Shown here: piece by piece, positions 10,254 to 26,483 of the stretch
Layout of the letters: every line of letters starts with the position of its first letter
How positions within the stretch are numbered: the stretch's first letter is position 1
From: Leucobacter zeae
GTDB taxonomy: Bacteria; Actinomycetota; Actinomycetes; Actinomycetales; Microbacteriaceae
Direction: 5' to 3'
Length of the DNA: 64,000 nucleotides
Assembly: GCF_016758175.1 (NCBI RefSeq)
Contig: NZ_QYAB01000001.1
Coordinates: 611,256 to 675,255, forward strand
The notes under the pieces: model-generated
The model's input: the letters and a program-made list of their open reading frames with translations, nothing else
What the model was told of the DNA's origin: nothing
The model's database searches: none
Translations under genes and position numbers: made by a program

Positions 10254-10547
10254 ATGGCGAACATCACTGTGTCCTATGCCGAGATCGAACGGGCCGCCGC
10301 GCGCCTGGGATCGGGACGCGACGAGATCACCCAACTGCTGCAGGCGCTGCAGGCGCAGATCGCCGAGCTCGTCTCGACCGGTTTCGTGACGGATCAGGCA
10401 TCCGGCCGGTTCCATGCGGCCTATCAGGAGTACACGGCCAGCGCGAACACGGTCGTCGCGAAGCTCTCCGAGATCCAGGCGTTCCTCACACAGACCGCGA
10501 GCGCGATCCGCGACATGGATGCGCAGATCGCAGCCAAGATCAACTGA
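10254..10547 (+). CDS. WXG100-like (ESAT-6 superfamily) protein
   Basis: A 97-aa protein of the size and helical-hairpin pattern expected for WXG100 substrates of type VII secretion. Two amphipathic helices (about 8-40 and 50-92) flank a turn. The turn reads GFVTDQASGRFHAAY and lacks a Trp-x-Gly, although the aromatic and small residues keep the spacing. There is no clear C-terminal YxxxD/E motif. A strong AAGGAGGAG lies 5 nt before ATG 10254, which settles the start. It is the first gene of the T7SS locus and is likely secreted by the ATPase encoded at 13755. Confidence 0.75.
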   Translation: MANITVSYAEIERAAARLGSGRDEITQLLQALQAQIAELVSTGFVTDQASGRFHAAYQEYTASANTVVAKLSEIQAFLTQTASAIRDMDAQIAAKIN

Positions 10548-10750
10548 CGCGCTCGGCGCGGCGGGTGCCGTCCGGGTGAGCGGATCCCGATGTGACCCGT
10601 CCACGCGCGGACCGCTCGCTCGATTCGCGCGTGGTCACGGCGGCCGAGCGATAGCCGTGCGACGGGTGCGCGATGGCAGCGGTGCGGATTCCGCGCTGCG
10701 CCCACCGCTTCCCGGTGCGACCCGAAATCGTTCTTCGAAAGGAGCGCCTC

Positions 10751-11059
10751 ATGGGCGAACGACTGAACCTGCTGGACGGCGAGCTGTCGGCGGCCGGCGT
10801 GTCCCTGGGGTGCGCAGCGGGTGGCATGGCGGGCGGCAGTTCCGGAAGGCCGTCCGGACGGCTGCAGAGCCTGAACGGCATCGGCGGTGAGATCGACGAC
10901 TACCTGCGCGGCTTGCAGACGGCCAGAGAAGCCCTGGCAGACGCTGCGAAGACGGCGTCACGAACCGTCGGCGACCTGATGGCGAACAGCGCCGAGCTCG
11001 ACGCCCACCTCGCTCGCACGGTCTACGCGGGATACGCCCTCGGGACGGAGGAGAGATGA
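10751..11059 (+). CDS. Small helical T7SS-locus protein
   Basis: A 102-aa protein of unknown family. The first ~40 residues are Gly/Ser-rich (AAGGMAGGSSGR); residues about 42-95 are predicted helical and rich in Ala, Asp and Thr, as in small Esx-like partners. GAAAGGAG lies 6 nt upstream of the ATG. The stop overlaps the next start (ATGA), so it is coupled to the hydrolase gene. It may be a secretion partner or chaperone of the hydrolase; this is inferred from position and size only. Confidence 0.7.
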   Translation: MGERLNLLDGELSAAGVSLGCAAGGMAGGSSGRPSGRLQSLNGIGGEIDDYLRGLQTAREALADAAKTASRTVGDLMANSAELDAHLARTVYAGYALGTEER

Positions 11060-12933
11060 CCTGGGTGCCCACCGGGGCGATCGGTTTCGGAATCCTCTCC
11101 GAGCCGTCCCCGATTGCCGGCGGCGTCGAGGAGATCTCGCGGATCGGAGACTACCTGCAGCAGGCCGTCGACGCCTCGTTCGACTACCGGAACGCCATCC
11201 AGAGCGCTGAGCGGACTCTCGCGAACGGGCAGGGGGACGCGCTGAACCGACTGCGGGACAAGCTCGCCCAGCGGCTCCTCCCCGGCCTGGAGCTTCTGGA
11301 TGCGAGCGCGGTCGCGGCGAAGGCGGGAGTCGACGGCTATGCGCAGGAGGTCGACCGCATCCACACCGACGCGCGTGCGTTGATCCGCGATGTCGAGGAT
11401 GACCTGTCGACGATCAGGACCCAGGCCGGCGAGATCTCCGAGATCGCCGACCTGATCGGGGCGGATGCGCCGGTGAGCTGGGACGCGGCGCCGCCTGGGG
11501 TGATGCCGGAGCCGCAGGCGGGAGCCGGAGCCGCCGGTCTCGACGCCGGCGAGCAGGAGATCCGGCGCGAGCAGTTGCAGCAGTTGTACGCGATGCAGTG
11601 GCTTTCGACCGCGGTGCTGTGGAAGCGCGCCTGCGACGACATCGAATCGGCCAAGGCCAAGTGGGCGAGCCTGGTGGCGGATCGGAAGGAAGCGGAGGGG
11701 CGCCTGGTCGGAGCGCTCCGCGCCACCGACCTCGGACGGCTCATCGACGCCGGAACCTCCGGGAGTTACTCCCGGAGAGCGATGATCGCATTCGGGCTGT
11801 CCGGTGAGATCCGAGGGGCGGCATTCGTCGATGAACGATCGACTGACCCGGCCGTCGATGCGTTCCTGGAGGACGAGGACCTGTCGGGAACCCAGCTGGC
11901 GGAAGCCTGGAGCGCACTCGGGCTGGGCCGCGAAGAGATCGTCGCGCTGCCGATGGAGTCCCTCGCTCGGCTCGCGAAGCACCCCGGACTGCCGGCCTGG
12001 GTGCAAGACATCGCGGCGAGAGAACTGTTGCACTCCTCACTCGTCGCGCCGAACGAGGCCTACGGCGCCTTCGGATTCGGTGCCAGCGGCCCGGGGGTCG
12101 AGGAATTCCGTCGTCGGATGCTGAGGCTGCACGAGGCCTGGCGGACCGCGCAGCAGGAGGCCGACCGAATGGGTGGGAAACCGACGGTGCAGCTGCTGGC
12201 GCTCGGCAGCCACGACGGAGCGCTGACGGCGGCCATTTCCCACGGCGACCTCGATACGGCGTCCCACGTCGGCGTCAACGTCTCGGGGATGCTGTCGAAC
12301 GTCGCGGAGATCGGGAGGGACGCCACAGGCGCTCGTTCGCTGTTCAACGAGGCGTATCAGGAGGACCCCACTCAGACGTATGCTGCGGTCACCTGGATCG
12401 GATACCGGTCGCCGAGTTTCGCCGACGTGAACCTCATGGGTCGCGCGAACGCCGGCGGCCCGGAGCTCGCCGCGTTCATCGACGGGATCTTCGACAGTCG
12501 GAACGCGAACGGGGCGCCCGCCGAGAACTTCACGGTCTTCGCCCACTCCTACGGGTCGACGACCGCGGCCGTCGCGCTCGAGCAGACCCGACACCGGGTG
12601 ACCTCCTTCGTGACGTACGGGTCGGCGGGGTTCGCGCAGACGACGATCGAGGACATGCGGGTCGACGGCGTCTTCGCGACGCATGCGTCGGGAGACCAGA
12701 CCGCTCCTTTCGGAACCTTGCTGGAGCACCCGTTCGATCCGCGGATGCTTCCCGGGGTGACGTCGTTCTCCGCGGAGGGCGGAGACGGATACACGCGGGT
12801 GACCGCGCACGACATGTTCACCGAGGACGACTCGGCGAGCCCGCTGAACTGGGGCGGCAAGGTCGGATACCTGACCACGGGCACGCGGTCGGCCGAAGAC
12901 ATGGGCAAGATCTGGGCGAATGGGAGGCTGTAA
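11056..12933 (+). CDS. DUF1023-type alpha/beta hydrolase with helical N-terminus
   Basis: A 625-aa protein. Residues about 1-230 are charged and strongly helical without a signal peptide, resembling WXG/LXG-type secretion domains. The C-terminal part (about 350-625) is an alpha/beta hydrolase of the DUF1023 family. Its nucleophile elbow is AHSYGST with Ser498 (an A-x-S-x-G variant of G-x-S-x-G), followed by FATHASGDQTAPFG and VTAHDMF, which may supply the Asp and His. It overlaps the upstream gene by 4 nt and the downstream lipoprotein gene by 1 nt, so the three form one translationally coupled unit. DUF1023 hydrolases often lie beside WXG100 genes in actinobacteria. An attractive reading is that it is the cargo of this T7SS; the substrate is unknown. 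Confidence 0.78.
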   Translation: MTWVPTGAIGFGILSEPSPIAGGVEEISRIGDYLQQAVDASFDYRNAIQSAERTLANGQGDALNRLRDKLAQRLLPGLELLDASAVAAKAGVDGYAQEVDRIHTDARALIRDVEDDLSTIRTQAGEISEIADLIGADAPVSWDAAPPGVMPEPQAGAGAAGLDAGEQEIRREQLQQLYAMQWLSTAVLWKRACDDIESAKAKWASLVADRKEAEGRLVGALRATDLGRLIDAGTSGSYSRRAMIAFGLSGEIRGAAFVDERSTDPAVDAFLEDEDLSGTQLAEAWSALGLGREEIVALPMESLARLAKHPGLPAWVQDIAARELLHSSLVAPNEAYGAFGFGASGPGVEEFRRRMLRLHEAWRTAQQEADRMGGKPTVQLLALGSHDGALTAAISHGDLDTASHVGVNVSGMLSNVAEIGRDATGARSLFNEAYQEDPTQTYAAVTWIGYRSPSFADVNLMGRANAGGPELAAFIDGIFDSRNANGAPAENFTVFAHSYGSTTAAVALEQTRHRVTSFVTYGSAGFAQTTIEDMRVDGVFATHASGDQTAPFGTLLEHPFDPRMLPGVTSFSAEGGDGYTRVTAHDMFTEDDSASPLNWGGKVGYLTTGTRSAEDMGKIWANGRL

Positions 12934-13667
12934 TGCACGCACACCCGAAGAGAGGAAGGGTCGGACGTGCGGTCGCAGCTCTCTGTGCAGGAGTGGCACT
13001 GGCGCTCGGGATCACCGGGTGCACTGGAGACGGAGGAGGACGTATGGGAACGGACCGCGCAGTAGATGGTGGGGGCCTGTCGCAGAGCGCGGCCGCGGGG
13101 CTCTCCGTGGAGCAGCAGTTCGATCTCGTGCGGGAGCGCGATGCGCGGATGCAGGAGCTGCTCACCGGGGCGCAGCTGCAGATCAGTTCGGGGGTCTGGG
13201 GCTGGGGGCAGAAGGGCGGCGCCCCGATCACGGGGCCGAACGCCTGGTCGCTTCCCGGGATGACCACCGACAACAGCTACTACCTCGACATGTGGCGTTG
13301 GATCCGTCCAGAAGGGGCGGCCGGGGCGAGAGTCGACCTGGAACCGATGATCGAGTACTTCGAATCCCAGGGCTGGGAGTTCGAGGTGACCGAGAACCGG
13401 GGAGACCACCGGGCGCGCGCCGACACCGGCGATGGGTACTGGGTGACGTGGAATGTCCAGGAGAACGGCATGTACAACATGGGCGTCATGAGCCGGTCCT
13501 ACTGGGGGTCGGGCCCGGAGCTGCTGAGTGCGATCGCGGACCGGACGCCCCCTGAGAAGCTCGAGATCGAGGAGTCCGAGCCCGGTGTCTACATCCCGTT
13601 CCCCGACTGGAACGATCCGCGCGACTACGCACCGAACCTGCTGGATCACAGCGGACCCGCGGAGTAA
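12933..13667 (+). CDS. Lipoprotein of the T7SS locus
   Basis: A 244-aa predicted lipoprotein. It has a basic N-terminus, a hydrophobic stretch and a lipobox ending LGITGC at about residue 30. The mature part has conserved-looking aromatic residues (VWGWGQKGG, YYLDMWRW) and ends at an acidic/proline-rich tail. No family was recognised. Its ATG overlaps the hydrolase stop (TAATG). The tight coupling suggests that it protects the cell from, anchors, or helps export the hydrolase; none of these can be decided from sequence. Confidence 0.75.
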   Translation: MHAHPKRGRVGRAVAALCAGVALALGITGCTGDGGGRMGTDRAVDGGGLSQSAAAGLSVEQQFDLVRERDARMQELLTGAQLQISSGVWGWGQKGGAPITGPNAWSLPGMTTDNSYYLDMWRWIRPEGAAGARVDLEPMIEYFESQGWEFEVTENRGDHRARADTGDGYWVTWNVQENGMYNMGVMSRSYWGSGPELLSAIADRTPPEKLEIEESEPGVYIPFPDWNDPRDYAPNLLDHSGPAE

Positions 13668-13754
13668 TCGGGCGACCCGCAACGGCAGCGGCCCGGCTCG
13701 TCGCCGGCGACCGAGACCACCTGCTCCAGCAACCAGCCGTAAGAGGACTCCGCC

Positions 13755-16700
13755 GTGAAAGTTCTGGTCACCCTGGCCCTGCCGGACGGGGCGACGCATG
13801 ACGTCGCGCTGTCGTGCGACGTCACCGCGACCGTCGCCGATGCCGCGCGCGCCCTGGTCCGCGCCGGTGTGAGCGGCGACCCCGGGGTCGAGGAGGCTGC
13901 GCGCTCGCGGTCCGAACCGCTCACCCTGCTCGGGCAGCCCGTCGCCGGAGCGCCGCCGGTGCTGCTGGACCCGGCCGCTCCGATCGGCGCGTCTGGCCTC
14001 CAATCCGGATGGATCGTCGAACCCGTGCTCGAGTTCGGCACGCATGGGGTCGCCCGGCGGATGATCGGTGTCATCGGGTACGTCGAGGTCCTGACCGGCC
14101 ACCACGCCGGCGCGTTCTACAGCCTGGTACCGGGGGAGAACCTCATCGGGAGGGACCCCGCCTGCCGCGTCTCCCTGCACGACGGCAGCGTATCGCGGCG
14201 TCACGCGGTCCTCCGGGCCGGCTCCGGCCTGGAGCTCAGGGACCTGGCCTCCGCGAACGGCGTGCTGGTCGACGGGGAGCCCGTCGCCGCGCTCCGGATC
14301 GGGTCCCCCGTGACGGTCGTGCTCGGGGAGGTGCGCCTGCGCATCATCCCAGGACCTCCTGCCGGCGCCGCCCACGACCTCTCCCACCGCATCATGCACA
14401 CCCGGGCGCCGCGGGTCTCCCCGCGTTTCGCGGCATCGGAGCGGGAGCTGCCGATGCCCCCGACCCCGGCGAAGCCGAGCCGGATCCCGGTGCTCGCCTT
14501 GCTCGCGCCGATGGTGATGGGCGGGGCGCTGTACGCGGTGACGCAGTCGCCGATGACTCTCATGATGGTCGTGTTCTCGCCGCTCATGATGGTCGGTGCT
14601 TGGGCGGACGGCACGATCGGCGGCAGGCGGAAGCTCCGCGGGGAGCTCGAGCGGTTCGCCGCGGACGTCCGGATCGAGCGCGCCGAACTGCTCGACCTGC
14701 GGGAGCGCGAGATCGAGGTCCGTTCGTCGGAGACGCCGACCCTCGCCGAGGTCACCCGCGCGATCGCGGAGCGGGACAGCTTGCTCTGGGCGCGCAGACC
14801 GGAGCACCGATCGTTCCTCGAGGTGCGCTTCGGCGTGGGCGCCCTCCCGAGCCGCACCGCCGTCATGCTGCCGCATCGGGGCGACACGGTGCGCGAGCAG
14901 TGGGACGTGCTGCGCGGCATCGCGGCCGAGTTCAAGGAGGTCGATCCGGTTCCCGTGCTCGAGAGATTCGACCGGTGCGGATCGATCGGGGTCGCGGGTC
15001 CGCGGATGTGGGCCGGAGGCATGGCGAGATCGCTCGTGCTGCAGCTCGTCGGGCTCCACTCGCCGGCGGAACTCGCGCTCGCGTGCTTCGCGAGCCCGGA
15101 CCATGCCGAGGAGTGGAGCTGGCTGAAGTGGCTGCCGCACGTCGACGCGGTGACCAGCCCGCTCCCCGTCTGGCAGCTTGCCGAGGACGAACCCGGCTCG
15201 CTGCGCCTGCTCATCGCGCTCGAGGGGCTGGTGGAGGCGCGCCGCGCGTCGGCTGGATCCCGCTCATCCGTGCGGTCGCACCTCGACATGGACACTCGCA
15301 ACGACGATGCGCAGGGCGAGGCGGTGCGGGATCTCCCGGTGATCCCGACCGTGCTCATCCTCGTGCTCGACGACGCCTGCATGGAACGATCGAGGCTCAT
15401 CGCGATCGCCGAGGCCGGTCCGGACCTCGGGATCCACTTCATCTGGGTCGGCGGCGCGCGGGCGGAACTGCCCGCGGCCTGCCGCACGTTCGTCGAGCTC
15501 GGCGAGGGCGACGGACGCGTGGGATTCGTGCGCACGGCGACGAGCGTGCCCCTGCAGCGCTGGGAGTTCGTCGGAGCCCCCGAGGCACTCGGGCTGGCGC
15601 GCCGACTATCGGCTGTCGAGGACTCCGGTGCGCGGGTGCTCGACGAGAGCGACCTCCCGCGGGCCGTGCACCTCCGAGACCTGCACTCCACCGACCTGCT
15701 GGGCGCCGCACCGCCAGTGGCTCGATCCTGGGCGGACTCCGGATCGCTCGTGTCGCACTGGTCCAGGGGTGAGGAACGCGACCCGCTCGCGCTCGCCGCA
15801 GTCGTGGGGCAGGGGACCGAGGGACCGATGGTGGTCGACCTGCGCACCCACGGACCGCACGCGCTCGTCGGCGGGACGTCGGGGGCGGGGAAGTCCGAGT
15901 TCCTCCAGACGTGGATCATGAGCCTCGCGACCCGGATCAGCCCGGACCGGCTGACATTCCTGCTGGTCGACTACAAGGGCGGCGCCGCGTTCGCCGAGTG
16001 CACCGGTCTCCCGCACACCGTGGGTCTGGTCACGGACCTCAGCCCGCACCTGGTGCGGCGCGCCCTGACCTCCCTGCGCGCCGAGCTCCGCTACCGGGAG
16101 GAACTGCTCGCGGCCCACGGGGCGAAGGATCTCATCACGATGGAGCGCCGATCCGACCCCGCGGCGCCGCCGGTGCTCGTGATCGTGATCGACGAGTTCG
16201 CCGCGCTCGCGAACGAGGTCCCCGAGTTCGTCGACGGCGTGATCGATATCGCGCAGCGCGGGCGATCCCTGGGCCTGCACCTCATCATGGCGACCCAGCG
16301 TCCCGCGGGCGTCATCACGGACAACCTCCGCGCCAACACCAACCTGCGCGTGGCGCTGCGGATGGCCGACGAATCGGACAGCGCCGACGTCATCGGGGTG
16401 ACTGACGCGGCCTTCTTCGACGCCGAGACCCCGGGGCGAGGGGCGATCAAGGCGGGTCCGGGGCGGATCGAGCACTTCCAGTCCGGATACCTCGGCGGCC
16501 GGGCGGGGAACGCCGACGTCGAGTCGCGCATCGAGGTGCGCTCCCTGGGCTTCGCCGAGGGCGAGCCCTGGAACATCCTGCCCGAGCAGACGGGCTCGGC
16601 CAGGAGGCGGGCGAAGCCCCCGCGCGACATCGAGCGGCTGCGCGACGGCATCGTCGCGGCGGCGAGGCTGTCCGGAATACGTGAGCCGCGGAGGCCTTGG

Positions 16701-18467
16701 CTGGACGAGCTCCCGAGGGTCCTCGACCTGCGCGACCTCACAGAGATCGAGGCGTGCTCGGGGGTGCGAGCCGGAACGGGCGACGCCGTCACGATCGGCC
16801 TGCGCGACGACCCGGCCGCGCAGGCCCAGCTCCCCGTCGCGATCGACTTCGAGGCGGCGGGCAACGTCTCGTTCATCGGGGCCGGCGGGACGGGGAAGAC
16901 CAGCGCGCTGATCACGTTGGCCGCGTCCCTGTGCCTCGGGGCCGACGCGCGGCCGGTGCAGCTGTACGCGATCGATGCGGCCGGAGGCGCGCTCGACGCC
17001 ATCTCGGCGCTGCCGACCGTCGGTGCGGTCGCGTCGCTATCCGACCTGGAGCTCGTCAGGCGGATCCTCCGACACCTGCTCGATGTCATTGCGGAGCGGG
17101 GTCCGCGGTTCGCCTCCGCTCGGGCCGGCGGGCTCTCCGCCTACCGGGCGACCCCCGAGCATCACCGGGAGCCCCGCATCGTGCTGCTGCTCGACGGCTT
17201 CGGCGCGTTCCGGCAGGCCACCGAAGCGCTCGGCAGCACGGAGTCCCCGTTCCGGATGCTGCACGAGGTCATGACGGCGGGGCGCGCGGTCGGCGTGCAC
17301 GTCGCGCTGACGAGCGATCGCGCCTCGGCGTTCCCCGCGGCGTTGGCCGCGAGCCTGCAGCGGCAGGTCGTGCTGCGCCTCGCGGCCCCGCACGATTACG
17401 GGTACCTGGGAGTGAAGAGCGACGCGCTCGCGGACGCGGGTCCCGGCCGCGCGGTGCTCGCCGGCGAGCTCGACGAGATCCAGATCGCTCTGCTCGGCGG
17501 CCGGCCGGATCTCGCCGGTCAGGCTGCCGCCATCGAAGAACTGGCGCTCGCGCTCCGGCAGCGGGGCGTCGCAGCTGCGGTCGAGGTGCGGAACGCCCCC
17601 GATCGGATCCCGCTCGCGGGGATCGCCGTCGAGGTCGACGGCCGGGCGGCGTTCGGCATCGACACCCGAACCCTCGCCCCCGCGGGCCTACCGGCTTCCG
17701 GCCTCGCCGTCGTCTCGGGGCCGCCCGGGTCGGGGCAGTCCACCGCGGTCCGCGCCTGCGTCGCGGCCATGCGGCGCTGGGCGGCTGCGCGCGGGGAAGC
17801 CGTCGAGGCGGCCCTGCTCACGCTGAGCCCCGATGGGCTCCGGTCGGCGAGCGATTGGGACCGTACGGCCCTCGGTGAGGACGAAGTGCGAGGTCTCGGT
17901 GCGGCGTTCGTGCGGGCCATCGGCGGTCCGCCCGTCGAGCCGGCCCGTGGGGTGCCTGGCGGGGTCGGCGGCCCGATCGGCGGCCCGCCCGGCATCGCGA
18001 CGCCCGGCACCGCGACGCCGCCGCCGGAACCGATCGTCTTCCCGAGCCCCGGAGCGCGCGGGATCATCGTGGTCGAGCGTCCCGCCGACGCCGAGGGGAC
18101 GGCGGCGCTCCCCGTGCTCATCGCGCTCGCGAAGGCGGCCAGACGCTCCGACGTGCTCGTGATCTTCGAGTTCGAGCAGGGCGCGGCCGGGGGGATCTGG
18201 GATCTCTTCAATGCCCTCAAACAACCGCGGTGGGGGCTCGCCCTGCAGCCCGACGACTCGGAGAGCCAGACGCCCTTCCGGGAATCGTTCGGCCGGGTGA
18301 AGCGCGCCGATTTCCCGCGTGGACGGGGCTTCGCGGTCGAGAGCGGACGGGTCGCCCCCGTGCACGTCGCGCTTCCCGACGAACCGGAGCGCGATCGCGC
18401 CTGTGCGCGGATCGATCGGGGTGGGGTACTCTGGACGACCGGTCCGCAGTGCGGCCCGCATATCTGA
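13755..18467 (+). CDS. essC: EssC/EccC-like FHA-FtsK/SpoIIIE type VII secretion ATPase
   Basis: A 1570-aa membrane ATPase, the motor of a type VII secretion system. The N-terminus has a ubiquitin-like region (about 1-90), then an FHA domain (about 105-205, with IGRDPACRVSL, SRRH and ASANGVLVDG). Two transmembrane helices follow (about 244-285). Three FtsK-type ATPase modules come next. D1 has a canonical Walker A (GGTSGAGKS, 706-714) and Walker B (VIVIDEFAAL). D2 has GAGGTGKTS at about 1042 and LLLDGFGAF. D3 has GPPGSGQST at 1322, with Gln1328 replacing the Walker Lys, so it is probably inactive. FHA plus three fused ATPases is the layout of Firmicutes EssC rather than split mycobacterial EccCa/Cb. 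Start is GTG 13755. No EccB, EccD, EccE or mycosin gene is nearby. Confidence 0.88.
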   Translation: MKVLVTLALPDGATHDVALSCDVTATVADAARALVRAGVSGDPGVEEAARSRSEPLTLLGQPVAGAPPVLLDPAAPIGASGLQSGWIVEPVLEFGTHGVARRMIGVIGYVEVLTGHHAGAFYSLVPGENLIGRDPACRVSLHDGSVSRRHAVLRAGSGLELRDLASANGVLVDGEPVAALRIGSPVTVVLGEVRLRIIPGPPAGAAHDLSHRIMHTRAPRVSPRFAASERELPMPPTPAKPSRIPVLALLAPMVMGGALYAVTQSPMTLMMVVFSPLMMVGAWADGTIGGRRKLRGELERFAADVRIERAELLDLREREIEVRSSETPTLAEVTRAIAERDSLLWARRPEHRSFLEVRFGVGALPSRTAVMLPHRGDTVREQWDVLRGIAAEFKEVDPVPVLERFDRCGSIGVAGPRMWAGGMARSLVLQLVGLHSPAELALACFASPDHAEEWSWLKWLPHVDAVTSPLPVWQLAEDEPGSLRLLIALEGLVEARRASAGSRSSVRSHLDMDTRNDDAQGEAVRDLPVIPTVLILVLDDACMERSRLIAIAEAGPDLGIHFIWVGGARAELPAACRTFVELGEGDGRVGFVRTATSVPLQRWEFVGAPEALGLARRLSAVEDSGARVLDESDLPRAVHLRDLHSTDLLGAAPPVARSWADSGSLVSHWSRGEERDPLALAAVVGQGTEGPMVVDLRTHGPHALVGGTSGAGKSEFLQTWIMSLATRISPDRLTFLLVDYKGGAAFAECTGLPHTVGLVTDLSPHLVRRALTSLRAELRYREELLAAHGAKDLITMERRSDPAAPPVLVIVIDEFAALANEVPEFVDGVIDIAQRGRSLGLHLIMATQRPAGVITDNLRANTNLRVALRMADESDSADVIGVTDAAFFDAETPGRGAIKAGPGRIEHFQSGYLGGRAGNADVESRIEVRSLGFAEGEPWNILPEQTGSARRRAKPPRDIERLRDGIVAAARLSGIREPRRPWLDELPRVLDLRDLTEIEACSGVRAGTGDAVTIGLRDDPAAQAQLPVAIDFEAAGNVSFIGAGGTGKTSALITLAASLCLGADARPVQLYAIDAAGGALDAISALPTVGAVASLSDLELVRRILRHLLDVIAERGPRFASARAGGLSAYRATPEHHREPRIVLLLDGFGAFRQATEALGSTESPFRMLHEVMTAGRAVGVHVALTSDRASAFPAALAASLQRQVVLRLAAPHDYGYLGVKSDALADAGPGRAVLAGELDEIQIALLGGRPDLAGQAAAIEELALALRQRGVAAAVEVRNAPDRIPLAGIAVEVDGRAAFGIDTRTLAPAGLPASGLAVVSGPPGSGQSTAVRACVAAMRRWAAARGEAVEAALLTLSPDGLRSASDWDRTALGEDEVRGLGAAFVRAIGGPPVEPARGVPGGVGGPIGGPPGIATPGTATPPPEPIVFPSPGARGIIVVERPADAEGTAALPVLIALAKAARRSDVLVIFEFEQGAAGGIWDLFNALKQPRWGLALQPDDSESQTPFRESFGRVKRADFPRGRGFAVESGRVAPVHVALPDEPERDRACARIDRGGVLWTTGPQCGPHI
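18427..18432 (+). promoter_or_regulatory. Possible nusA -10 element inside the essC 3' end
   Basis: TACTCT within the last codons of essC, about 65 nt before the nusA start. nusA is only 29 nt from the essC stop, so its own promoter, if it has one here, must lie in this region. No convincing -35 was seen. Confidence 0.3.
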
Positions 18468-19561: not shown

Positions 19562-19601
19562 AGCACGACGGACCGCCCCGCTCGGCGCAGTCCGTCGTGC
19601 T
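19562..19601. terminator. Hairpin between convergent nusA and GH4 genes
   Basis: A perfect 12-bp stem (19562-19573 with 19590-19601) with a 16-nt loop. The right arm touches the GH4 stop codon. It can serve both strands. Confidence 0.65.
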
Positions 19602-20970
19602 ATCCGAGGGCGGCGGCGACGCCCGGAATGCGTTCCCGATAGCCGTCGAGCAGCCGCTTCGCGACGGCGACCGAATCGACGAGCGGGTGCGCTGCGAACC
19701 CCCGCCAGGCCAGGTCGGCATCGCGGCCGAGCGAAGCCCGCAGCATGATCTGCTCCGCGCTCTTCACCTGCTGCATGAGGCCCAGCATGTCGCCAGCGAC
19801 GGGTGCGACGCGGGTCGGGTGCACGCCGGCGGCGTCCACGCGGCAGGGCACCTCGATGACCGCGTCCTCCGGAAGCCCGGGGACGATCGACCCGTTCCCG
19901 ACGTTCAGGATCATCATCGCAGCCGCGCCCCCCGAGAGCGCCGTCATGAGCTCGATGGCCACGCGCTGGTATCCGCCGTCCTCGACGTCCTCGTCGAGAC
20001 GCGCGTCCCGATCCTCCTCGGCGCGGCTCTCGGCCATGTAGCTGTACTCGCGCTCGCGCAGCGTGGCCTCCCACAGCCCCAGGGTCTCGGCCGGCCCGGC
20101 TCCCCGCGCATCCGCGTAGAAGCGATCCTGCTGGCGCTTGAGGAACTCGCCGCGGGTCTCCGCCCCCGAGCGGATGCGCTCGGTCGCCTCGCGCGTGAAG
20201 TAGTAGTAGTACAGGTACTCGTTGGGCAGCGCGCCGATCGTGCGGATCCAGTCGAACCCCATGAGGCGCGCCTCCTCGATCCCGACGAGCGCGTCGTCGG
20301 AACCGAGGATTCCCGGGAGCCGGTCCACCCCGTCGACGCTCAGGCGTCGCAGCCAGCCCAGGTGGTTCAGACCGACATAGTCGAAATCGACCCGGTCGAA
20401 GTCGACCCGGTCGGGATCCATGCCGGCGGCTGCCACGGCGCGGGTGGCGCGTCGCATGAGGCCGATCGGGGTATCGCAGATGCCGATGACGCGGTCCCCG
20501 AGCACGCGCCGCATGGCCTCGGTGACGAGGCCCGCGGGGTTGGTGAAGTTGATGAGCCAGGCGTCGGGAGCGAGGTCGCGCACCCGCTCGGCGAGGGCGG
20601 TGACCACGGGGATCGTGCGGAGCGCGTAGGCGAGCCCGCCCGGGCCGACCGTCTCCTGGCCGAGCACCCCGAGGTCGAGCGCGGTGCGCTCGTCGGCGAT
20701 GCGTCCGTCGATCCCGCCGATCCGCATCGCCGAGAAGATGAAGTCGGCGCCCGCGATGGCCGCGTCGAGATCCGTTCCCGCGGTCACCCGCGGTGCGCTG
20801 GGGAGCGCCGGTGCGAGGTGGTCGATGATCTTGCGGATCGTCTCGAGGCGCTCGGGGAGGACGTCGTGCAGATGCAGCTCGTCGACGCGGATCGGTGCGT
20901 CCTCGCGCCCGAGCGCGCTGAAGAGCTGGGGGATGCGGAACCCGCCGCCGCCGATGACCGTCAGTTTCAT
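19600..20970 (-). CDS. Glycoside hydrolase family 4 (phospho-glycosidase-like)
   Basis: A 456-aa GH4 enzyme, a family that cleaves glycosides by NAD+/Mn2+-dependent redox elimination. The Rossmann start (LTVIGGGGFRIP), the motif VLGQETVGPGG, NFTNPAG, the metal-ligand Cys in GICDTP and His in GLNHLGW are visible. The residues after the metal Cys (Asp-Thr-Pro) are nearer the CDMP signature of 6-phospho-alpha-glucosidases than the CN(V/I)P of 6-phospho-beta-glucosidases, while the rest looks like the beta type. The substrate is therefore open. ATG 20970 overlaps the DeoR gene stop (ATGA), so both are co-expressed. The linked importer is ABC type, not PTS, so a phosphorylated substrate would need the neighbouring PfkB kinase. 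Confidence 0.88.
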   Translation of the reverse strand: MKLTVIGGGGFRIPQLFSALGREDAPIRVDELHLHDVLPERLETIRKIIDHLAPALPSAPRVTAGTDLDAAIAGADFIFSAMRIGGIDGRIADERTALDLGVLGQETVGPGGLAYALRTIPVVTALAERVRDLAPDAWLINFTNPAGLVTEAMRRVLGDRVIGICDTPIGLMRRATRAVAAAGMDPDRVDFDRVDFDYVGLNHLGWLRRLSVDGVDRLPGILGSDDALVGIEEARLMGFDWIRTIGALPNEYLYYYYFTREATERIRSGAETRGEFLKRQQDRFYADARGAGPAETLGLWEATLREREYSYMAESRAEEDRDARLDEDVEDGGYQRVAIELMTALSGGAAAMMILNVGNGSIVPGLPEDAVIEVPCRVDAAGVHPTRVAPVAGDMLGLMQQVKSAEQIMLRASLGRDADLAWRGFAAHPLVDSVAVAKRLLDGYRERIPGVAAALG

Positions 20971-21755
20971 GGGTGGATGACCTCGATTCCGAGTTCGGTG
21001 AGCGTGCGGAGCGTCACGGGGTCGGACGCCTGCGTCGCGATGAGCGTGTCGATGGCCTCTGGCCCGCACACGGACAGGAGGCCGGTTCCCGGGAACTTCG
21101 TCTCGTCGGCCACGAGCACGATGCGCGCTGCGGAGTCGATGATCGCGCGTTTCACGGGGACCTCGACGATGGTCGTGTCGAGCACGGTTCCGTCGCGGCT
21201 GATGCCCGAGGTGCCGATGAAGGCGATCGAGGCCCGCAGGCGATGGAGGCCCGCCTCGGTGATCGGTCCGACGAGCGAGTGGTAGGAGCGCCGGAGCGTG
21301 CCCCCGAGCAGCACGAGCTCGACGGCGGGGTCGTCGCGGAGCTCGTCGAGCACGGCGAGGCTCGCGGTGACGACCGTGACGCGGCGGCCGCGCAGGTGCC
21401 GCGCGATGAGCGCGGTCGTGGTGCCGATGTCGAGCACGACGATGTCTCCGTCCGAGACGAGCTCGGCGGCTCGGCGGGCGACGAGGACCTTGGACGGGTG
21501 GGAGGCGCGGGCCACCTCCTGGAACGGGCGCTCGTCAGGCTCCTCGTCCGCGCTCCGCTCCGCTCCCGCCGCAGCGGCCACGGCGCGGCCCCCGCCCCGC
21601 ACCCGGCTGATGCGCCCAGCCTCGCCGAGCGCGTTGAGGTCGCGGCGGATGGTCGCCTGGCTGACGCCGAGCCACTCCGAGAGATCCTGCACCGACGCCT
21701 CGCCGAGTTCGCCGACCCTGGTCAGGATCCTGGCGTGCCGGGTGTCTGCGAGCAT
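20967..21755 (-). CDS. DeoR-family transcriptional regulator
   Basis: A 262-aa repressor. An N-terminal DeoR HTH (about 1-60, VQDLSEWLGVSQATIRRDLNAL) is followed by the DeoR sensor domain with the ligand-site pattern DIGTTTALIARHL. Start 21755 is chosen over GTG 21761 because TAGGCT lies exactly 6 nt upstream, the leaderless spacing of this window. It is divergent from the kinase-importer genes and coupled to the GH4 gene; it most likely controls both by binding the intervening operator in response to a phosphosugar. Confidence 0.88.
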   Translation of the reverse strand: MLADTRHARILTRVGELGEASVQDLSEWLGVSQATIRRDLNALGEAGRISRVRGGGRAVAAAAGAERSADEEPDERPFQEVARASHPSKVLVARRAAELVSDGDIVVLDIGTTTALIARHLRGRRVTVVTASLAVLDELRDDPAVELVLLGGTLRRSYHSLVGPITEAGLHRLRASIAFIGTSGISRDGTVLDTTIVEVPVKRAIIDSAARIVLVADETKFPGTGLLSVCGPEAIDTLIATQASDPVTLRTLTELGIEVIHP

Positions 21756-21761
21756 GGCCAC

Positions 21762-21767
21762 AGCCTA
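21762..21767 (-). promoter_or_regulatory. -10 element, leaderless start of the deoR-like gene
   Basis: TAGGCT on the minus strand, 6 nt before ATG 21755. Confidence 0.55.
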
Positions 21768-21788
21768 ACGCGCAATATCGATCACGAT

Positions 21789-21804
21789 CAAGCAGAAATG
21801 CTTG
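21789..21804. promoter_or_regulatory. Candidate DeoR operator
   Basis: CAAGCA-gaaa-TGCTTG is a perfect 6-bp inverted repeat. It overlaps the TTGAAA -35 element (21802-21807) of the kinase promoter and lies between the two divergent transcription units, where a DeoR-type repressor would act. Confidence 0.55.
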
Positions 21805-21831
21805 AAACTGATTGAAGATGCGTGTTATTGT
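21802..21831 (+). promoter_or_regulatory. Promoter of the kinase-importer operon
   Basis: -35 TTGAAA (21802-21807), an 18-bp spacer and -10 TATTGT (21826-21831), then 6 nt to ATG 21838. It is the most complete promoter in the window and predicts a leaderless mRNA. Confidence 0.65.
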
Positions 21832-21837
21832 CCAGAC

Positions 21838-22935
21838 ATGTCTGGATCCGACGACGCCCGAGCGCCCGAGCGCCTCGACCTGTTCCTCGCCGGTTCCCTC
21901 TTCTTCGATATCGTCTTCACCGACCTTCGCGGGGTCCCTCGGCCCGGAACCGAGGTGATGGCGAACGGGATGGGGTCGCTGCCTGGCGGGGTCGCCAATC
22001 TCGCGGTCGCCGCGGCGCGGCTCGGGCTCGTCACCGGCCTGGCCGCAGGCTTCGGCGACGACGCCTACGGCCACTGGAACTGGGCCATGCTCGGCGACCA
22101 GGAGGGGATCGACCTCGCCCGGTCGCGCATCGTCGAGGGGTGGCACTCGTCGGTGACGGTCTCCCTCAACCAGGCCGGCGACCGCAGCATGATCACGCAC
22201 GCCGACCCGATGCCGCTCGGGGTCGCCGACCTCATCGGGGCCGAACTGCCGGATTCCCGCGCCTTCTTCGTCGACCTCGGCGAAGCGGGGCACCGGGCTG
22301 CGGATGCGGGATCCGGTGCGGCGCCGTGGTGGCGCCCGGCGCTCTCGGGCGACACTCTGGTCTTCGCGGACCTCGGCTGGGACGATTCGGGGACCTGGGA
22401 CGAGGGGACGCTCGCGCTGCTCGACGGCTGCCACGCGTTCCTTCCGAACCACGTCGAGGCCATGGCCTACACCCGCACCGACACCCCCGAGGCCGCGGTG
22501 CGCCGCCTGGCCGACCGGGTGCCCCTCGCCGTCGTCACGATGGGCGGGGCGGGCGCGATCGCGATCGATCAGTCGACCGGGGAGGAGGCGCGCGTGCCGA
22601 GCCTCCCCGTCCCGGTGCTCGACGCGACGGGGGCCGGCGACGTCTTCGCCGCGGCGATGATCGCGGGGACGCTGCGCGAGTGGCCGCTGGTCGATCGGCT
22701 GAACTTCGCGACGCTGTGCTCGGGGCTCGCCGTGCAGCACTTCGGGGGCTCCCTCGGGTCGCCGGGGTGGGGGGAGCTCGCGGACTGGCGCGCCGCCGCG
22801 CTGGCTCGGGCCGAGCACGACGAGGCCGCGCACGAGATCGCCGCGCGCTTCGACTTCATCGACCGGGCGCTGCAGCGCGGCGCCCCCGCCGCTCGGCGGG
22901 CCCGCGCGACGCTCGAGTACGACCGCCGGCGCTGA
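21838..22935 (+). CDS. PfkB-family carbohydrate kinase
   Basis: A 365-aa ribokinase-family sugar kinase. The N-terminal GSLPGGVANLAVAAARLG segment and the C-terminal DATGAGDVFAAAM signature (catalytic Asp and anion hole) are intact. The start at 21838 is fixed by the promoter spacing; an upstream in-frame ATG at 21802 overlaps the -35 and is rejected. The gene is the first of the plus-strand sugar operon, 65 nt before the solute-binding protein gene. It may phosphorylate the imported sugar, or the monosaccharide released by the GH4 enzyme; the specificity is not readable. Confidence 0.88.
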   Translation: MSGSDDARAPERLDLFLAGSLFFDIVFTDLRGVPRPGTEVMANGMGSLPGGVANLAVAAARLGLVTGLAAGFGDDAYGHWNWAMLGDQEGIDLARSRIVEGWHSSVTVSLNQAGDRSMITHADPMPLGVADLIGAELPDSRAFFVDLGEAGHRAADAGSGAAPWWRPALSGDTLVFADLGWDDSGTWDEGTLALLDGCHAFLPNHVEAMAYTRTDTPEAAVRRLADRVPLAVVTMGGAGAIAIDQSTGEEARVPSLPVPVLDATGAGDVFAAAMIAGTLREWPLVDRLNFATLCSGLAVQHFGGSLGSPGWGELADWRAAALARAEHDEAAHEIAARFDFIDRALQRGAPAARRARATLEYDRRR

Positions 22936-23000
22936 GGCGCACCCCGCATTCACTACGATCGAGTCGGATTCCCCGACCGCACACCGAAGGAGCGAAAGCA

Positions 23001-24356
23001 ATGAAGCGCACACGCAGGTTCATGGTCGCAGGCGTCGCCGTCGCCGCTGCGACCGCGATGGCACTCACCGGGTGCACGCCGGGCTCTGACGCCCAGGCGC
23101 CCGACATGACCGACCACGAAGTGCAGACGGACGTCTCGAAGCTCGGCGACGTCACCCTCACCGTGTGGGATCAGGAGGTCAGGGGCGGCCAGAACGAGCA
23201 GATGGAGCAGCTCAACGAGGCCTTCCAGAAGCAGTATCCGAACATCACCATCGAGCGGAACTCGCAGTCCTTCGAGGACCTCGGCAAGACGCTCCGGCTC
23301 GCGCTGACGGGCAACGAGGCCCCCGATGTCGTGCAGGCCAACAACGCCCGCAACTCGATGGGCCAGTTCATCGAGGCAGGGCAGCTGGTGCCGTTGGATC
23401 CCTGGGCCGAGGCCTACGGGTGGGAGGACCGCTTCCCCGACAGCGTGCTCCAGTACACGCGCTACAGCGACGACGCCGTGACGTTCGGCTCGGGTTCCAT
23501 CTACGGTCTGCCTCAGGTCGGCGAGGTGGTCGGCGTCTTCTACTCGAAGCCCAAGCTCGAGAAGCTCGGGATCGACGTGCCGCAGGACTGGGCCGCCTTC
23601 GAGGCGGCGCTCGATCAGGCGAAGCAGGCCGGCGAGACGCCGCTGCTGCTGGGCAACATCGAGAAGTGGCCGGCGATCCACGTGTTCGGCCCGGTGCAGG
23701 GCGCGAAGGCGGACGCCGGGGAGATCCAGAGCCTCGGCTTCGGCAATGCCGGGGCGTCATGGGAGACCCCGGAGAACGAGGCCGCCGCGCAGACGCTCGC
23801 GGACTGGGGCGCCGACGGCTACTTCAACGACGGCGTCAACGGCACGGAGTACGACGACGCGTGGCAGAAGCTCGCCAAGGGCGACGGCGTCTTCCTCATC
23901 GGAGGCTCCTGGCTCGCGGCCGACCTCGAGGACGCGATGGGTGAGGACGTGGGCTTCTTCGCCCCGCCCGTCACCGCGGGCGAGGGTGCGCACACGACCG
24001 GCGGCACCGGCCTGCCGTTCGCGATGACCTCCGCGTCCCAGAACCCCGACGCGGCCGCGGCCTACATCGACTTCATCACGAACGAGGACGCGATGCAGGT
24101 GCTCGCCGACACCGGCAACCTCCCCGTCGTGAACACGCAGGACTACGCTCCGGAGTCCGGGGTGCAGAGCGACGTGTACACCACCTTCGGCGACGTCACG
24201 CAGAACGGCGCGATCCTCCCGTACCTCGACTACGCGACGCCGACCTTCTCGGACACGCTCGGCGAGGCGCTGCAGCGGCTGATCGACGGCAAGACCACTC
24301 CGAAGGAGTTCACCGCGGCGCTCGAGGCCGACTATGCGGACTTCGTCGGCGAGTAG
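23001..24356 (+). CDS. Sugar ABC transporter solute-binding lipoprotein
   Basis: A 451-aa family 1 extracellular solute-binding protein. A signal peptide with lipobox ALTGC anchors it at about residue 25. The mature protein starts with VTLTVWDQEV and contains the family pattern PNITIERNSQSFEDLGKTL. The ATG at 23001 follows GAAGGAG by about 9 nt. TACGAT at 22954-22959 may be a second internal promoter, common for abundant binding proteins. The following permease gene overlaps it by 23 nt. Confidence 0.92.
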   Translation: MKRTRRFMVAGVAVAAATAMALTGCTPGSDAQAPDMTDHEVQTDVSKLGDVTLTVWDQEVRGGQNEQMEQLNEAFQKQYPNITIERNSQSFEDLGKTLRLALTGNEAPDVVQANNARNSMGQFIEAGQLVPLDPWAEAYGWEDRFPDSVLQYTRYSDDAVTFGSGSIYGLPQVGEVVGVFYSKPKLEKLGIDVPQDWAAFEAALDQAKQAGETPLLLGNIEKWPAIHVFGPVQGAKADAGEIQSLGFGNAGASWETPENEAAAQTLADWGADGYFNDGVNGTEYDDAWQKLAKGDGVFLIGGSWLAADLEDAMGEDVGFFAPPVTAGEGAHTTGGTGLPFAMTSASQNPDAAAAYIDFITNEDAMQVLADTGNLPVVNTQDYAPESGVQSDVYTTFGDVTQNGAILPYLDYATPTFSDTLGEALQRLIDGKTTPKEFTAALEADYADFVGE

Positions 24357-25290
24357 TGCGCCGCGCACGGAGACGGAGGCGCTCGCCGTCTCCGTCTCCG
24401 CGCGCCCGGGCCGGGCCCGTGGGAGACTCTCGGGACCCGGTTGGCTGCCGTACCTCTACCTGCTGCCGGCGCTGCTCGTCTACGGCGCGTTCATGCTCTT
24501 CCCGCTCGCGCGCTCGGTGCAGCTGTCGCTCTACGACTGGGACGGCCTCTCGCTCGCGACCTTCGTCGGGTTCGGCAACTACCTCGACGTCTTCGCGGAC
24601 GAGCGCCTGCGGGCGGCGTTCGGGCACGCGCTCGTGCTCATCTTCTTCTTCTCGATCCTGCCGGTCTGCATCGGCCTCGTGCTCGCCGCGGTGCTCAGCC
24701 GCGCGAAGGTGCGGGGGATCGGGATATTCCGCACGCTCGTCTTCCTCCCGCAGGTCATCGCGATGGTCGTGGTCGCGGTGGCGTGGCGCCAGATCTACGC
24801 CCCGGATGGGACCATCAACACCGTGCTCCGGGCCGTCGGCCTCGGCGACGCCGCACGGGCCTGGCTGGGCGACTACGCGCTCGCGCTGCCGGCGGTCGGC
24901 CTCGTCGGAACGTGGGTGTCGACCGGTCTCGTGACGGTGCTGCTGCTCGCGGGCGTCGCCCGGATCCCCAAGGAGCAGTTCGAAGCGGCGCGCCTCGACG
25001 GGGCCGGCCCGGTCCGCGAGTTCTTCGCGCTGATCGTCCCGTCGGTGCGGCCGGAGCTCACCGTGGCCCTCACGCTCACGATCATCGCCTCGCTCAAGAC
25101 CTTCGACCTCGTCTACGTCACCACGGGCGGCGGGCCCGGATCGAGCACGACGGTGCCGAGCTACGAGGTGTTCCGTCGCGCGTTCGAACAGGGGCAGGTC
25201 GGATCCGCAGCCGCGGTCGGGGTGACCCTGACGCTGCTGATCTTCGCCATCAACGTGGTCGTCAACCGGATCGGGGAGCGCGAACGATGA
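24334..25290 (+). CDS. Sugar ABC transporter permease (MalF type)
   Basis: A 318-aa inner-membrane permease with six predicted helices and the EAA loop EAARLDGAGPVREFFALIVP that docks the ATPase. ATG 24334 lies inside the end of the binding-protein gene; no better in-frame start exists before the first helix at about residue 37. It overlaps the next permease by 4 nt. Confidence 0.9.
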   Translation: MRTSSASSAPRTETEALAVSVSARPGRARGRLSGPGWLPYLYLLPALLVYGAFMLFPLARSVQLSLYDWDGLSLATFVGFGNYLDVFADERLRAAFGHALVLIFFFSILPVCIGLVLAAVLSRAKVRGIGIFRTLVFLPQVIAMVVVAVAWRQIYAPDGTINTVLRAVGLGDAARAWLGDYALALPAVGLVGTWVSTGLVTVLLLAGVARIPKEQFEAARLDGAGPVREFFALIVPSVRPELTVALTLTIIASLKTFDLVYVTTGGGPGSSTTVPSYEVFRRAFEQGQVGSAAAVGVTLTLLIFAINVVVNRIGERER

Positions 25291-26102
25291 ACGTGTCCAC
25301 CTCCGAGCGGGCGATGAACTACGCGATCCTCGCCGTCTTCTCGCTCATCGTGCTCTGGCCGCTCGGCACCGTGCTCGCGAAGGCCTTCGGGCCCGCGAGC
25401 GTCGCTGCCGGCCGCGAGGGCGCGTTCCATCCCGAGAACTTCGCCGCGGCGTGGGTCGAGGGGCGGTTCAGCCAGTACATGCTGACCTCGGCGATCGTCG
25501 CGGTGGTCGTGGTGTGCACGGCGACGATCGTGTCGATCCTCGCGGGCTACGCCTTCGGCACCATGCGATTCCGCGGCAGCACGGTGCTCTTCTACGTGTT
25601 CCTGCTCGGCATCATGGTGCCGACGGAGGCGATCATCATCCCGCTGTTCTTCGACCTGCGCGCCGCGGGGCTCACGGACACGGTCTGGGGCGTCGCCCTG
25701 CCCCAGATCGCGCAGTCGACGGCGTTCGGCACGTACTGGATGCGCGCCTACTTCCGCGGGGCCAACGTCTCCATGATCGAGGCGGCCCGCATCGACGGGG
25801 CGACGCCGCGCCGGATCCTGTGGCAGGTGCTCGTGCCCACGGCCCGCCCCGCGATCCTGACCATGGTGATCCTCTTCTTCATGTGGACCTGGAACGAGTT
25901 CCTCATCCCGCTCGTGATGTCGCCGAGCGGGTCGTTCCGCACGGCACCGCTCGGACTCGCCTTCTTCCAGGGCCAGTACACGCAGGGAACCGCGCTCCTC
26001 GCGGCGGGCGCCGTGCTCGTCGCGCTCCCGATCGTGGTGCTCTACTTCTTCCTCCAGCGCCACTTCATCCGCGGCATGCTGGAGGGCGCCGTCAAGGAAT
26101 GA
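25287..26102 (+). CDS. Sugar ABC transporter permease (MalG type)
   Basis: A 271-aa permease with six helices and the EAA loop EAARIDGATPRRILWQVLVP. It is translationally coupled to the upstream permease by ATGA. No ATP-binding protein gene follows; by analogy with MsiK/MsmX systems, a shared ATPase encoded elsewhere probably energises the importer. It is the last gene of the sugar island; ylxR starts 79 nt later. Confidence 0.92.
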   Translation: MNVSTSERAMNYAILAVFSLIVLWPLGTVLAKAFGPASVAAGREGAFHPENFAAAWVEGRFSQYMLTSAIVAVVVVCTATIVSILAGYAFGTMRFRGSTVLFYVFLLGIMVPTEAIIIPLFFDLRAAGLTDTVWGVALPQIAQSTAFGTYWMRAYFRGANVSMIEAARIDGATPRRILWQVLVPTARPAILTMVILFFMWTWNEFLIPLVMSPSGSFRTAPLGLAFFQGQYTQGTALLAAGAVLVALPIVVLYFFLQRHFIRGMLEGAVKE

Positions 26103-26181
26103 CGGGGACGGCGCGCCGTTCGAGCCGCCTCGCCGGGGTGCGATGGAGGCCGACGCGTGCGAAGCGTGGGAAACTGGTAGG

Positions 26182-26439: not shown

Positions 26440-26483
26440 TGAGCGGCTCACGATGAGACCCGTCCGGTAATTACTGGTTCTCG

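What the first reader, a model, noticed from the sequence alone, without database searches (positions are those of the whole stretch)
10254..18467. Compact type VII secretion locus with an EssC-style motor and no EccB, EccD, EccE or mycosin
Five genes in one direction encode a WXG100-like protein, a small helical protein, a hydrolase with a helical N-terminus, a lipoprotein and a 1570-aa FHA/FtsK ATPase. The FHA plus three fused ATPase modules recalls Firmicutes EssC (T7SSb) rather than mycobacterial EccCa/EccCb. The usual actinobacterial membrane components are absent here. It could be a reduced or hybrid T7SS, or a distinct system that uses partners encoded elsewhere.
Basis: partly seen in the sequence, partly recalled or inferred. 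Interest (0 to 1): 0.75.

Follow-up and report, generated by a model that had tools for sequence, protein, structure and literature searches.

The report
Compact non-ESX type VII secretion locus
An actinobacterium carries a very small protein-export locus whose motor has a ubiquitin-like part and a phosphate-sensing part built into it and which probably exports a fat-splitting toxin together with its antidote; it belongs to a branch of type VII secretion systems that I did not find described.

Summary
The 1570-aa motor consists of a ubiquitin-like domain, one FHA domain, a membrane segment and three FtsK-type modules. In a 56-row tree the motor lies outside EccC and outside a clade of Bacillota EssC plus a T7SSd/e-type motor, in a fully supported actinobacterial clade. 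The genome (3.47 Mb, rated 100% complete) gave no match to EccB, EccD, mycosin, EssB or free YukD; EccE and EssA were not searched. Across 50 related loci the recurring neighbours are a WXG100 protein (44 of 50; GFxT[DE] instead of WxG), a large effector of one of two families (43 of 50; one is a serine hydrolase with intact triad), and lipoproteins whose family follows the effector's. A kinase lies nearby in 1 of 50, a phosphatase in 0 of 50. Best reading: a stripped-down T7SS subtype exporting a lipase-type toxin with lipoprotein immunity. Whether the motor needs unlinked partners is open. The 2024 T7SSa-j classification, as far as I read it, does not describe this arrangement. New variant of a known kind.

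The parts
10254..10547 (+). WXG100-family protein, 97 aa, GFVTD in place of W-x-G
   Evidence: PF06013 56.5 bits, TIGR03930 50.3 bits, sequence
10751..11059 (+). Small helical protein, 102 aa, possible helical escort (Lap-like) of the effector; role inferred
   Evidence: relatives in 19 of 50 clade-W loci; weak likeness to WXG100, hhalign probability 31%
11056..12933 (+). Effector candidate, 625 aa: helical N-terminus and Abhydrolase_8 domain, triad S498-D547-H585
   Evidence: triad conserved in 30, 30 and 31 of 31 aligned relatives
12933..13667 (+). Lipoprotein, 244 aa, candidate immunity protein
   Evidence: lipobox at Cys30; lipoprotein family follows effector family
13755..18467 (+). Motor ATPase, 1570 aa: ubiquitin-like, FHA, membrane segment, three FtsK-type modules
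13755..14039 (+). Ubiquitin-like domain of the motor, residues 1-95
   Evidence: profile match to redesigned ubiquitin E 4.3e-8; YukD in 9 of 67 members; model pLDDT 89.2; fold matches
14070..14357 (+). FHA domain of the motor, residues about 106-201
14484..14546 (+). Hydrophobic segment of the motor, residues 244-264, followed by a long helix (266-324)
   Evidence: hydropathy and model
15798..16499 (+). Module D1, residues about 682-915, Walker A K713 and Walker B D813-E814 intact
16791..17504 (+). Module D2, residues about 1013-1250, Walker A K1048
17697..18254 (+). Module D3, residues about 1315-1500, degenerate Walker A (Q1328)
   Evidence: end of the module estimated

Best explanation
A compact type VII secretion module of its own subtype. 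Shown by sequence or model: a triple FtsK-type motor that carries its own ubiquitin-like domain (a separate protein, EsaB/YukD, in T7SSb; the N-terminus of EccD in ESX) and an FHA domain with phosphothreonine-type residues; a WXG100-family protein with GFVTD; a large protein with a helical N-terminus and an intact Ser-Asp-His hydrolase; a lipoprotein that co-varies with it. Inferred: the WXG100 protein and the small helical protein escort the helical N-terminus of the hydrolase to the motor; ATP hydrolysis, mainly in D1, drives it across the membrane; the hydrolase attacks lipids of competing bacteria; the lipoprotein, on the outer face of the producer's membrane, neutralises it. The FHA domain probably couples the motor to a phosphoprotein made by a kinase encoded elsewhere. 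Least certain: that no further membrane protein is needed.
For: Motor homology to EccC/EssC; separate, fully supported clade; ubiquitin-like domain; FHA residues kept in 46-49 of 49 rows; WXG100 gene nearby in 44 of 50 and an effector in 43 of 50 clade-W loci; triad kept; helical N-terminus of the effector matches the WXG100 profile at probability 88.5% against 0.3% for its C-terminal part; lipoprotein family follows effector family, 13 of 13 against 3 of 28 and 27 of 28 against 2 of 13; two Streptomyces plasmid loci list only a putative T7SS-secreted protein and a WXG100 gene beside the motor; a T7-secreted lipase with lipoprotein immunity is known (PMC10730906, passages).
Against: No secretion or activity is shown. 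6 of 50 clade-W loci show no WXG100 gene within 9 kb. The second effector family (f5) shows no likeness to WXG100 (probability 4%) or to the hydrolase domain (3%). The effector-lipoprotein link rests on few independent switches and does not reach significance. No fold match of the N-terminal domain reaches E 0.001, and general ubiquitin-like folds score as well as EccD. All known T7SS described in detail use additional membrane proteins (recalled, and PMC11217815). Hydropathy finds one clear membrane segment, not two.
Confidence: 0.6

Rival explanations
1. Same motor and substrates, but the machine needs membrane partners encoded elsewhere in the genome that current family models do not recognise, for example YhgE/Pip proteins standing in for EsaA.
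For: Known systems have such partners. Three sub-cut-off EsaA-model matches exist in the genome, the two examined being YhgE/Pip proteins. Four Pkinase-domain genes lie outside the window, and sister loci have a kinase nearby in 7 of 11.
Against: In the family table of neighbours I saw no multi-helix membrane protein shared between the different chromosomal sites. YhgE/Pip proteins are common in Gram-positive bacteria (recalled).
Confidence: 0.35
2. The hydrolase is a housekeeping or cell-envelope enzyme exported by the motor, and the lipoprotein is a machine part, not an immunity protein.
For: No toxin activity is shown; one lipoprotein gene lies between effector and motor in the window.
Against: Lipoprotein families change with the effector family and occur in tandem copies in several loci, as is usual for immunity genes (recalled; also noted for other T7SS toxins in PMC11217815).
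Confidence: 0.15
3. A displaced part of an ESX (T7SSa) system.
For: FtsK-type motor and WXG100 gene in an actinobacterium.
Against: No EccB, EccD or mycosin in the genome; motor outside the EccC references.
Confidence: 0.02
4. Not a protein exporter: a defence or DNA-handling ATPase that happens to lie beside a WXG100 gene.
For: FtsK-domain matches to defence models, the best 144.6 bits to mad8.
Against: EssC, EccCa and EccCb models score far higher (462, 317 and 294 bits); the best solved relatives include EccC5 and YukB; WXG100 neighbours in 44 of 50 loci.
Confidence: 0.04

Closest known systems
T7SSb (Bacillota Ess/Yuk system, EssC motor)
   Same: FHA plus membrane segment plus three fused FtsK-type modules; single WXG100 gene; effector with small helical partners and immunity genes
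   Different: Motor in another clade and under the EssC model's cut-off; one FHA and a ubiquitin-like domain instead of two FHA domains; no EssB; EsaA model matched only below cut-off by YhgE/Pip proteins; WXG motif replaced
T7SSa (ESX, EccC motor)
   Same: FtsK-type triple motor; an EccD-like ubiquitin fold is present, but on the motor
   Different: No EccB, EccD or mycosin; FHA on the motor; motor outside the EccC references
T7SSd (PMC11217815, Olsenella and Bifidobacterium)
   Same: Actinobacterial, FHA on the motor with phosphothreonine residues kept, single WXG100 gene, few components
   Different: No kinase, TsdH-like or TsdI-like gene in the window locus; ubiquitin-like domain present; motor outside the clade of a T7SSd/e-type motor
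TslA-TilA lipase and lipoprotein immunity of S. aureus (PMC10730906, passages)
   Same: Ser-Asp-His lipase domain, helical targeting part, small helical partners, lipoprotein neighbour (TslA-TilA)
   Different: Helical part is N-terminal here, C-terminal in TslA; the lipoproteins were not compared with TilA; no activity shown here

Membership tests
Type VII secretion in general | Membrane-bound EccC/EssC-type motor with FtsK modules | tested here: met
   EssC, EccCa, EccCb are the best models (all under their cut-offs); EccC and YukB among best solved relatives
Type VII secretion in general | WXG100-family protein at the locus | tested here: met
   PF06013 over cut-off; the W-x-G motif itself is not kept
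Type VII secretion in general | Secretion of the WXG100 protein and substrates | not testable with these tools
   needs an experiment
T7SSa (ESX) | EccB in the genome | tested here: not met
   no match in G000; matches in 8 of 60 genomes of the same search, 7 over cut-off
T7SSa (ESX) | EccD in the genome | tested here: not met
   no match to TIGR03920 or to YukD, its N-terminal domain
T7SSa (ESX) | Mycosin | tested here: not met
   no match
T7SSa (ESX) | EccE | not tested
   no search run
T7SSa (ESX) | Motor in the EccC clade | tested here: not met
   support 100 for the separating branch
T7SSb | Motor in the EssC clade and over the EssC model's cut-off | tested here: not met
   462 bits, cut-off 778; other clade
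T7SSb | EssB | tested here: not met
   no match to PF10140
T7SSb | Separate EsaB/YukD protein | tested here: not met
   no match to PF08817 in the genome; a ubiquitin-like domain is on the motor instead
T7SSb | EsaA | tested here: not met
   three matches under cut-off; the two examined are YhgE/Pip, the third was not examined
T7SSb | EssA | not tested
   no search run
T7SSd (PMC11217815) | Kinase TsdD at the locus | tested here: not met
   none among the window's five genes; a kinase within 9 kb in 1 of 50 clade-W loci
T7SSd (PMC11217815) | TsdH and TsdI | tested here: inconclusive
   no such protein among the locus genes; not searched genome-wide
T7SSd (PMC11217815) | No ubiquitin-like component | tested here: not met
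   a ubiquitin-like domain is present, fused to the motor
T7SSd (PMC11217815) | Motor groups with T7SSd/e-type motors | tested here: not met
   L145 groups with Bacillota EssC, support 100; L145 was identified by gene content only

The most novel reading that the evidence does not exclude
An undescribed T7SS subtype, spread over several actinobacterial families and found on Streptomyces plasmids, in which one polypeptide carries the ubiquitin-like, phospho-sensing, membrane and motor parts and exports lipase-type antibacterial toxins with little more than a WXG100 partner that has lost W-x-G: the smallest working type VII machine.
Probability: 0.3. Interest if true: 0.8.

Novelty: new variant of a known kind. 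Interest (0 to 1): 0.62.

Why it matters
It would separate what a type VII motor needs from what ESX and Ess systems add. If the motor exports without EccB/EccD or EssB/EsaA, the minimal machine becomes testable with a handful of genes. The built-in ubiquitin-like domain offers a direct handle on the role of EsaB, which PMC11217815 calls unclear. It also points to a toxin-immunity repertoire in Microbacteriaceae. [quoted passage not shown] this would be an exception.

Tried and rejected
ESX fragment: rejected by genome-wide searches. T7SSb member: rejected. T7SSd member: rejected by locus content and tree. EsaA elsewhere: sub-cut-off matches, the two examined being YhgE/Pip. Defence system: FtsK-domain matches only, plus two chance-level ones for the WXG100 protein. 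YiaA/B two-helix gene (family f22, 7 loci) as a component: dropped, seen only in window-genus loci.

Led nowhere or weak: the fold search with residues 1-330 was filled by FHA domains, so residues 1-100 were modelled alone. Pfam YukD does not match the window's own N-terminus. The small helical protein has no firm family. The independent-pairs test for effector and lipoprotein has too few pairs to reach significance. The GC3-based gene caller fails on lower-GC loci such as L081, L082 and L087. PMC12573734 (passages) counts database matches to type VII factors in Leucobacter musarum and L. celer; the passages do not describe a system.

Rows dropped: 8 of 110 motors before the trees (L042, L014, L086, L116 as fragments or contig-limited; L088, L091, L104, L109 as duplicates of L008, L005, L013, L007). 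The 56-row tree uses a hand-chosen subset of the 102. Clade W (50 rows) was read from the FastTree tree; 18 of its rows are in the second tree. The N-terminal profile uses 67 of the 102 motors; left out were references without the domain, motors cut or unaligned there, and near-copies. The window's own WXG100 row was not in the alignment, because its open frame is long; its motif is read.
Full report
What is there. The window lies in a 3.47-Mb assembly of 6 contigs rated 100% complete; the closest named motor is from Leucobacter celer, 71% identical. Five + strand genes occupy 10254-18467: a 97-aa WXG100-family protein, a 102-aa helical protein, a 625-aa protein with a C-terminal Abhydrolase_8 domain, a 244-aa lipoprotein and a 1570-aa motor. 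They lie between genes that I read as proS and nusA (named from sequence, no family search).

The motor. The best curated models are EssC (462 bits, cut-off 778), EccCa (317, cut-off 509) and EccCb (294, cut-off 347), all under cut-off; solved relatives include EccC5 and YukB. It has one FHA domain. A profile of 67 such N-termini matches a redesigned ubiquitin at E 4.3e-8, another designed ubiquitin at 1.7e-5 and small archaeal modifier protein 1 at 2.2e-3. Pfam YukD is matched by 9 of the 67 members at E up to 0.1 (best 8.8e-4), not by the window's own. The model of residues 1-100 has mean pLDDT 89.2. No PDB match reaches E 0.001, but the list is ubiquitin-like folds almost throughout, among them EccD of ESX-3 (6umm_B, rank 5, E 2.3e-3), EccD1 (4kv2, Z 7.1, rmsd 2.5, 76 aligned) and EccD of ESX-5 (7npt_D8, Z 6.9, rmsd 3.9, 82 aligned). 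Talin FERM, TmoB and USP15 score as well or better (Z 7.5-8.1), so the fold is supported, not a specific tie to EccD. [quoted passage not shown]

The FHA domain resembles OdhI, GarA and FhaA (Z 16.6-17.7). The residues that I take, from recall, for the phosphothreonine site are kept in the window's clade: R133 in 46 of 49, S147, R148 and H150 in 49 of 49, N168 in 48 of 49 rows with a letter. D1 keeps the Walker A lysine in 50 of 50 and the Walker B Asp-Glu in 49 of 49 rows with a letter; the D2 lysine is kept in 45 of 50; in D3 it is R, L, Q or N in at least 43 of 50. So D1 is the likely engine and the FHA domain is likely still a phospho-sensor. Hydropathy finds one clear membrane segment, 244-264; the model continues with a helix 266-324; a two-helix hairpin as in EccC is inferred.

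The tree. In a 56-row, 1053-column tree with SH-aLRT support, a branch of support 100 separates the three EccC references, L147 and the Chloroflexota row L043 from the other 51. Of these, Listeria and Enterococcus EssC, a T7SSd/e-type motor (L145) and L141 form one group of support 100. The remaining 47 actinobacterial rows, the window included, form another of support 100. L145 was taken as T7SSd/e-type because its locus and the next stretch (L148) encode a WXG100 protein, a kinase, a phosphatase (by sight), a 328-aa one-helix protein and a 1320-aa protein with two hydrophobic segments. Fifteen rows have unusual composition, and the rooting is a choice. By eye the ubiquitin-like region is present in members of each main branch of the 47-row group, including Streptomyces and Rothia plasmids, and not in the EssC and EccC references.

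What travels with the motor. Clade W has 50 loci, mostly Microbacteriaceae where named. Within 9 kb of the motor, a WXG100 protein is found in 44 of 50 (not in L007, L027, L031, L033, L035, L040), the Abhydrolase_8-type effector in 30, a second large family (f5) in 15, both in L022 and L036, so an effector in 43 of 50. A relative of the sister loci's kinase is in 1 of 50 and of their phosphatase in 0 of 50. In the 11 sister loci the kinase is in 7, the phosphatase in 5. Some loci are cut by contig ends, so absences there are weak. The place differs: beside proS and nusA in Leucobacter, another conserved site in Curtobacterium; in the family table I saw no multi-helix membrane protein shared between sites. 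Two Streptomyces plasmid relatives list a putative T7SS-secreted protein and a WXG100 gene beside the motor and no Ecc genes nearby, in gene tables that may be incomplete.

The WXG100 protein. In place of W-x-G the window's has GFVTD. Of 44 aligned clade-W rows none has W-x-G; 42 have GFxT[DE] and two, of a second helical family, have a gap there. Sister rows have W-x-G in 10 of 11 and references in 7 of 7; Streptomyces-type rows have GYxT in 5 of 8 and W-x-G in 2 of 8. This marks the lineage and suggests that recognition by the motor differs; the second point is inference.

The effector and lipoprotein. The hydrolase triad is S498 (30 of 31), D547 (30 of 31), H585 (31 of 31), the misses being gaps. 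Its N-terminal helical part matches the WXG100 profile with probability 88.5%, against 0.3% for its C-terminal part; the small helical protein reaches 31%. The second effector family f5 matches neither WXG100 (4%) nor the hydrolase domain (3%), and one member has only sub-cut-off hydrolase matches in Pfam. Loci with only f5 have lipoprotein family f11 in 13 of 13, loci with only the Abhydrolase_8 effector in 3 of 28; families f16/f19/f31 are in 2 of 13 and 27 of 28. Related loci are not independent: the tree needs 7 effector switches and yields 5 independent pairs on supported branches; f11 goes the same way in 3-4 of them and never the other way (median p 0.125). Lipoprotein genes occur in tandem in several loci. 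S. aureus TslA, a T7-secreted phospholipase neutralised by lipoprotein TilA and carried by small helical partners, is a close functional precedent (PMC10730906, passages).

Genome-wide tests. The window's genome has no match to EccB, YukD, EssB, EccD or mycosin; one WXG100 protein over cut-off and three weak matches under it; and only this motor and one other protein, which I read as FtsK, with FtsK_SpoIIIE matches. The EsaA model gives three matches under its cut-off; the two examined are YhgE/Pip proteins. EccE and EssA were not searched. Among the 37 genomes of the genus, the window's own included, 27 have a motor of this type (best match 480 bits or more, my threshold), and 25 of these have no EccB match; a few of these genomes are incomplete. 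Four Pkinase-domain genes exist, none in the window.

What is in print. PMC11217815 (2024; abstract, Methods, Results parts 1-2 of 3, the substrate section, Discussion and term passages read) defines T7SSa-j; of the eight new subtypes only T7SSd is actinobacterial, and it has a kinase, TsdH, TsdI and no ubiquitin-like protein. Its main text does not contain Leucobacter, Microbacter-, Curtobacterium or Cryobacterium; its supplementary accession lists were not seen. The names T7SSc, T7SSd, T7SSe and T7SSk occur as whole words in no other paper of the library. [quoted passage not shown] Searches for YukD with FtsK and fusion, Leucobacter with type VII secretion, Microbacteriaceae genera with WXG100, and EccC with FHA and ubiquitin-like terms gave no title or abstract that describes this system; most of the listed papers were not opened. 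Subscription journals are largely not covered.

Verdict. The locus is built like a T7SS and is best filed as an undescribed T7SS subtype, not as a member of T7SSa, b or d. Confident: motor class, separate clade, absence of the searched ESX and Ess components. Likely: fused ubiquitin-like domain, lipase-type toxin with lipoprotein immunity. Open: whether the motor works without other membrane proteins.

Noticed in passing
window 19600-26102: A sugar cassette (read by eye as a glycosidase, DeoR-type regulator, sugar kinase and ABC transporter) lies between nusA and ylxR-infB (ylxR at about 26181-26440), where related loci such as L005, L006 and L008 have nusA and infB close together.
   Followed up: partly
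L106, L107, L108, L110, L112, L114: Sister motors in other families lie beside phospho-signalling genes (L106: kinase, PP2C, FHA and RDD-FHA proteins by Pfam); L112 and L114 also beside genes that look like a MoxR-transglutaminase cluster (by sight, no family search).
   Followed up: partly
L028, L030, L032: Three Mycobacterium genomes carry this non-ESX motor, with WXG100-type genes beside it; in L030 also a DUF6777 membrane-anchored protein.
   Followed up: no
L081, L102, L123, L124: A second branch in the same genus and on a Rothia plasmid: motor with large exported-looking proteins and, in L081, L123 and L124, a kinase; an RHS protein in L081.
   Followed up: no
L007, L027, L031, L033, L035, L040: Motors of clade W without a WXG100 gene within 9 kb; orphan motors or partners elsewhere.
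   Followed up: no
L022, L036: Cryobacterium loci that hold both effector families and both lipoprotein groups beside one motor.
   Followed up: no
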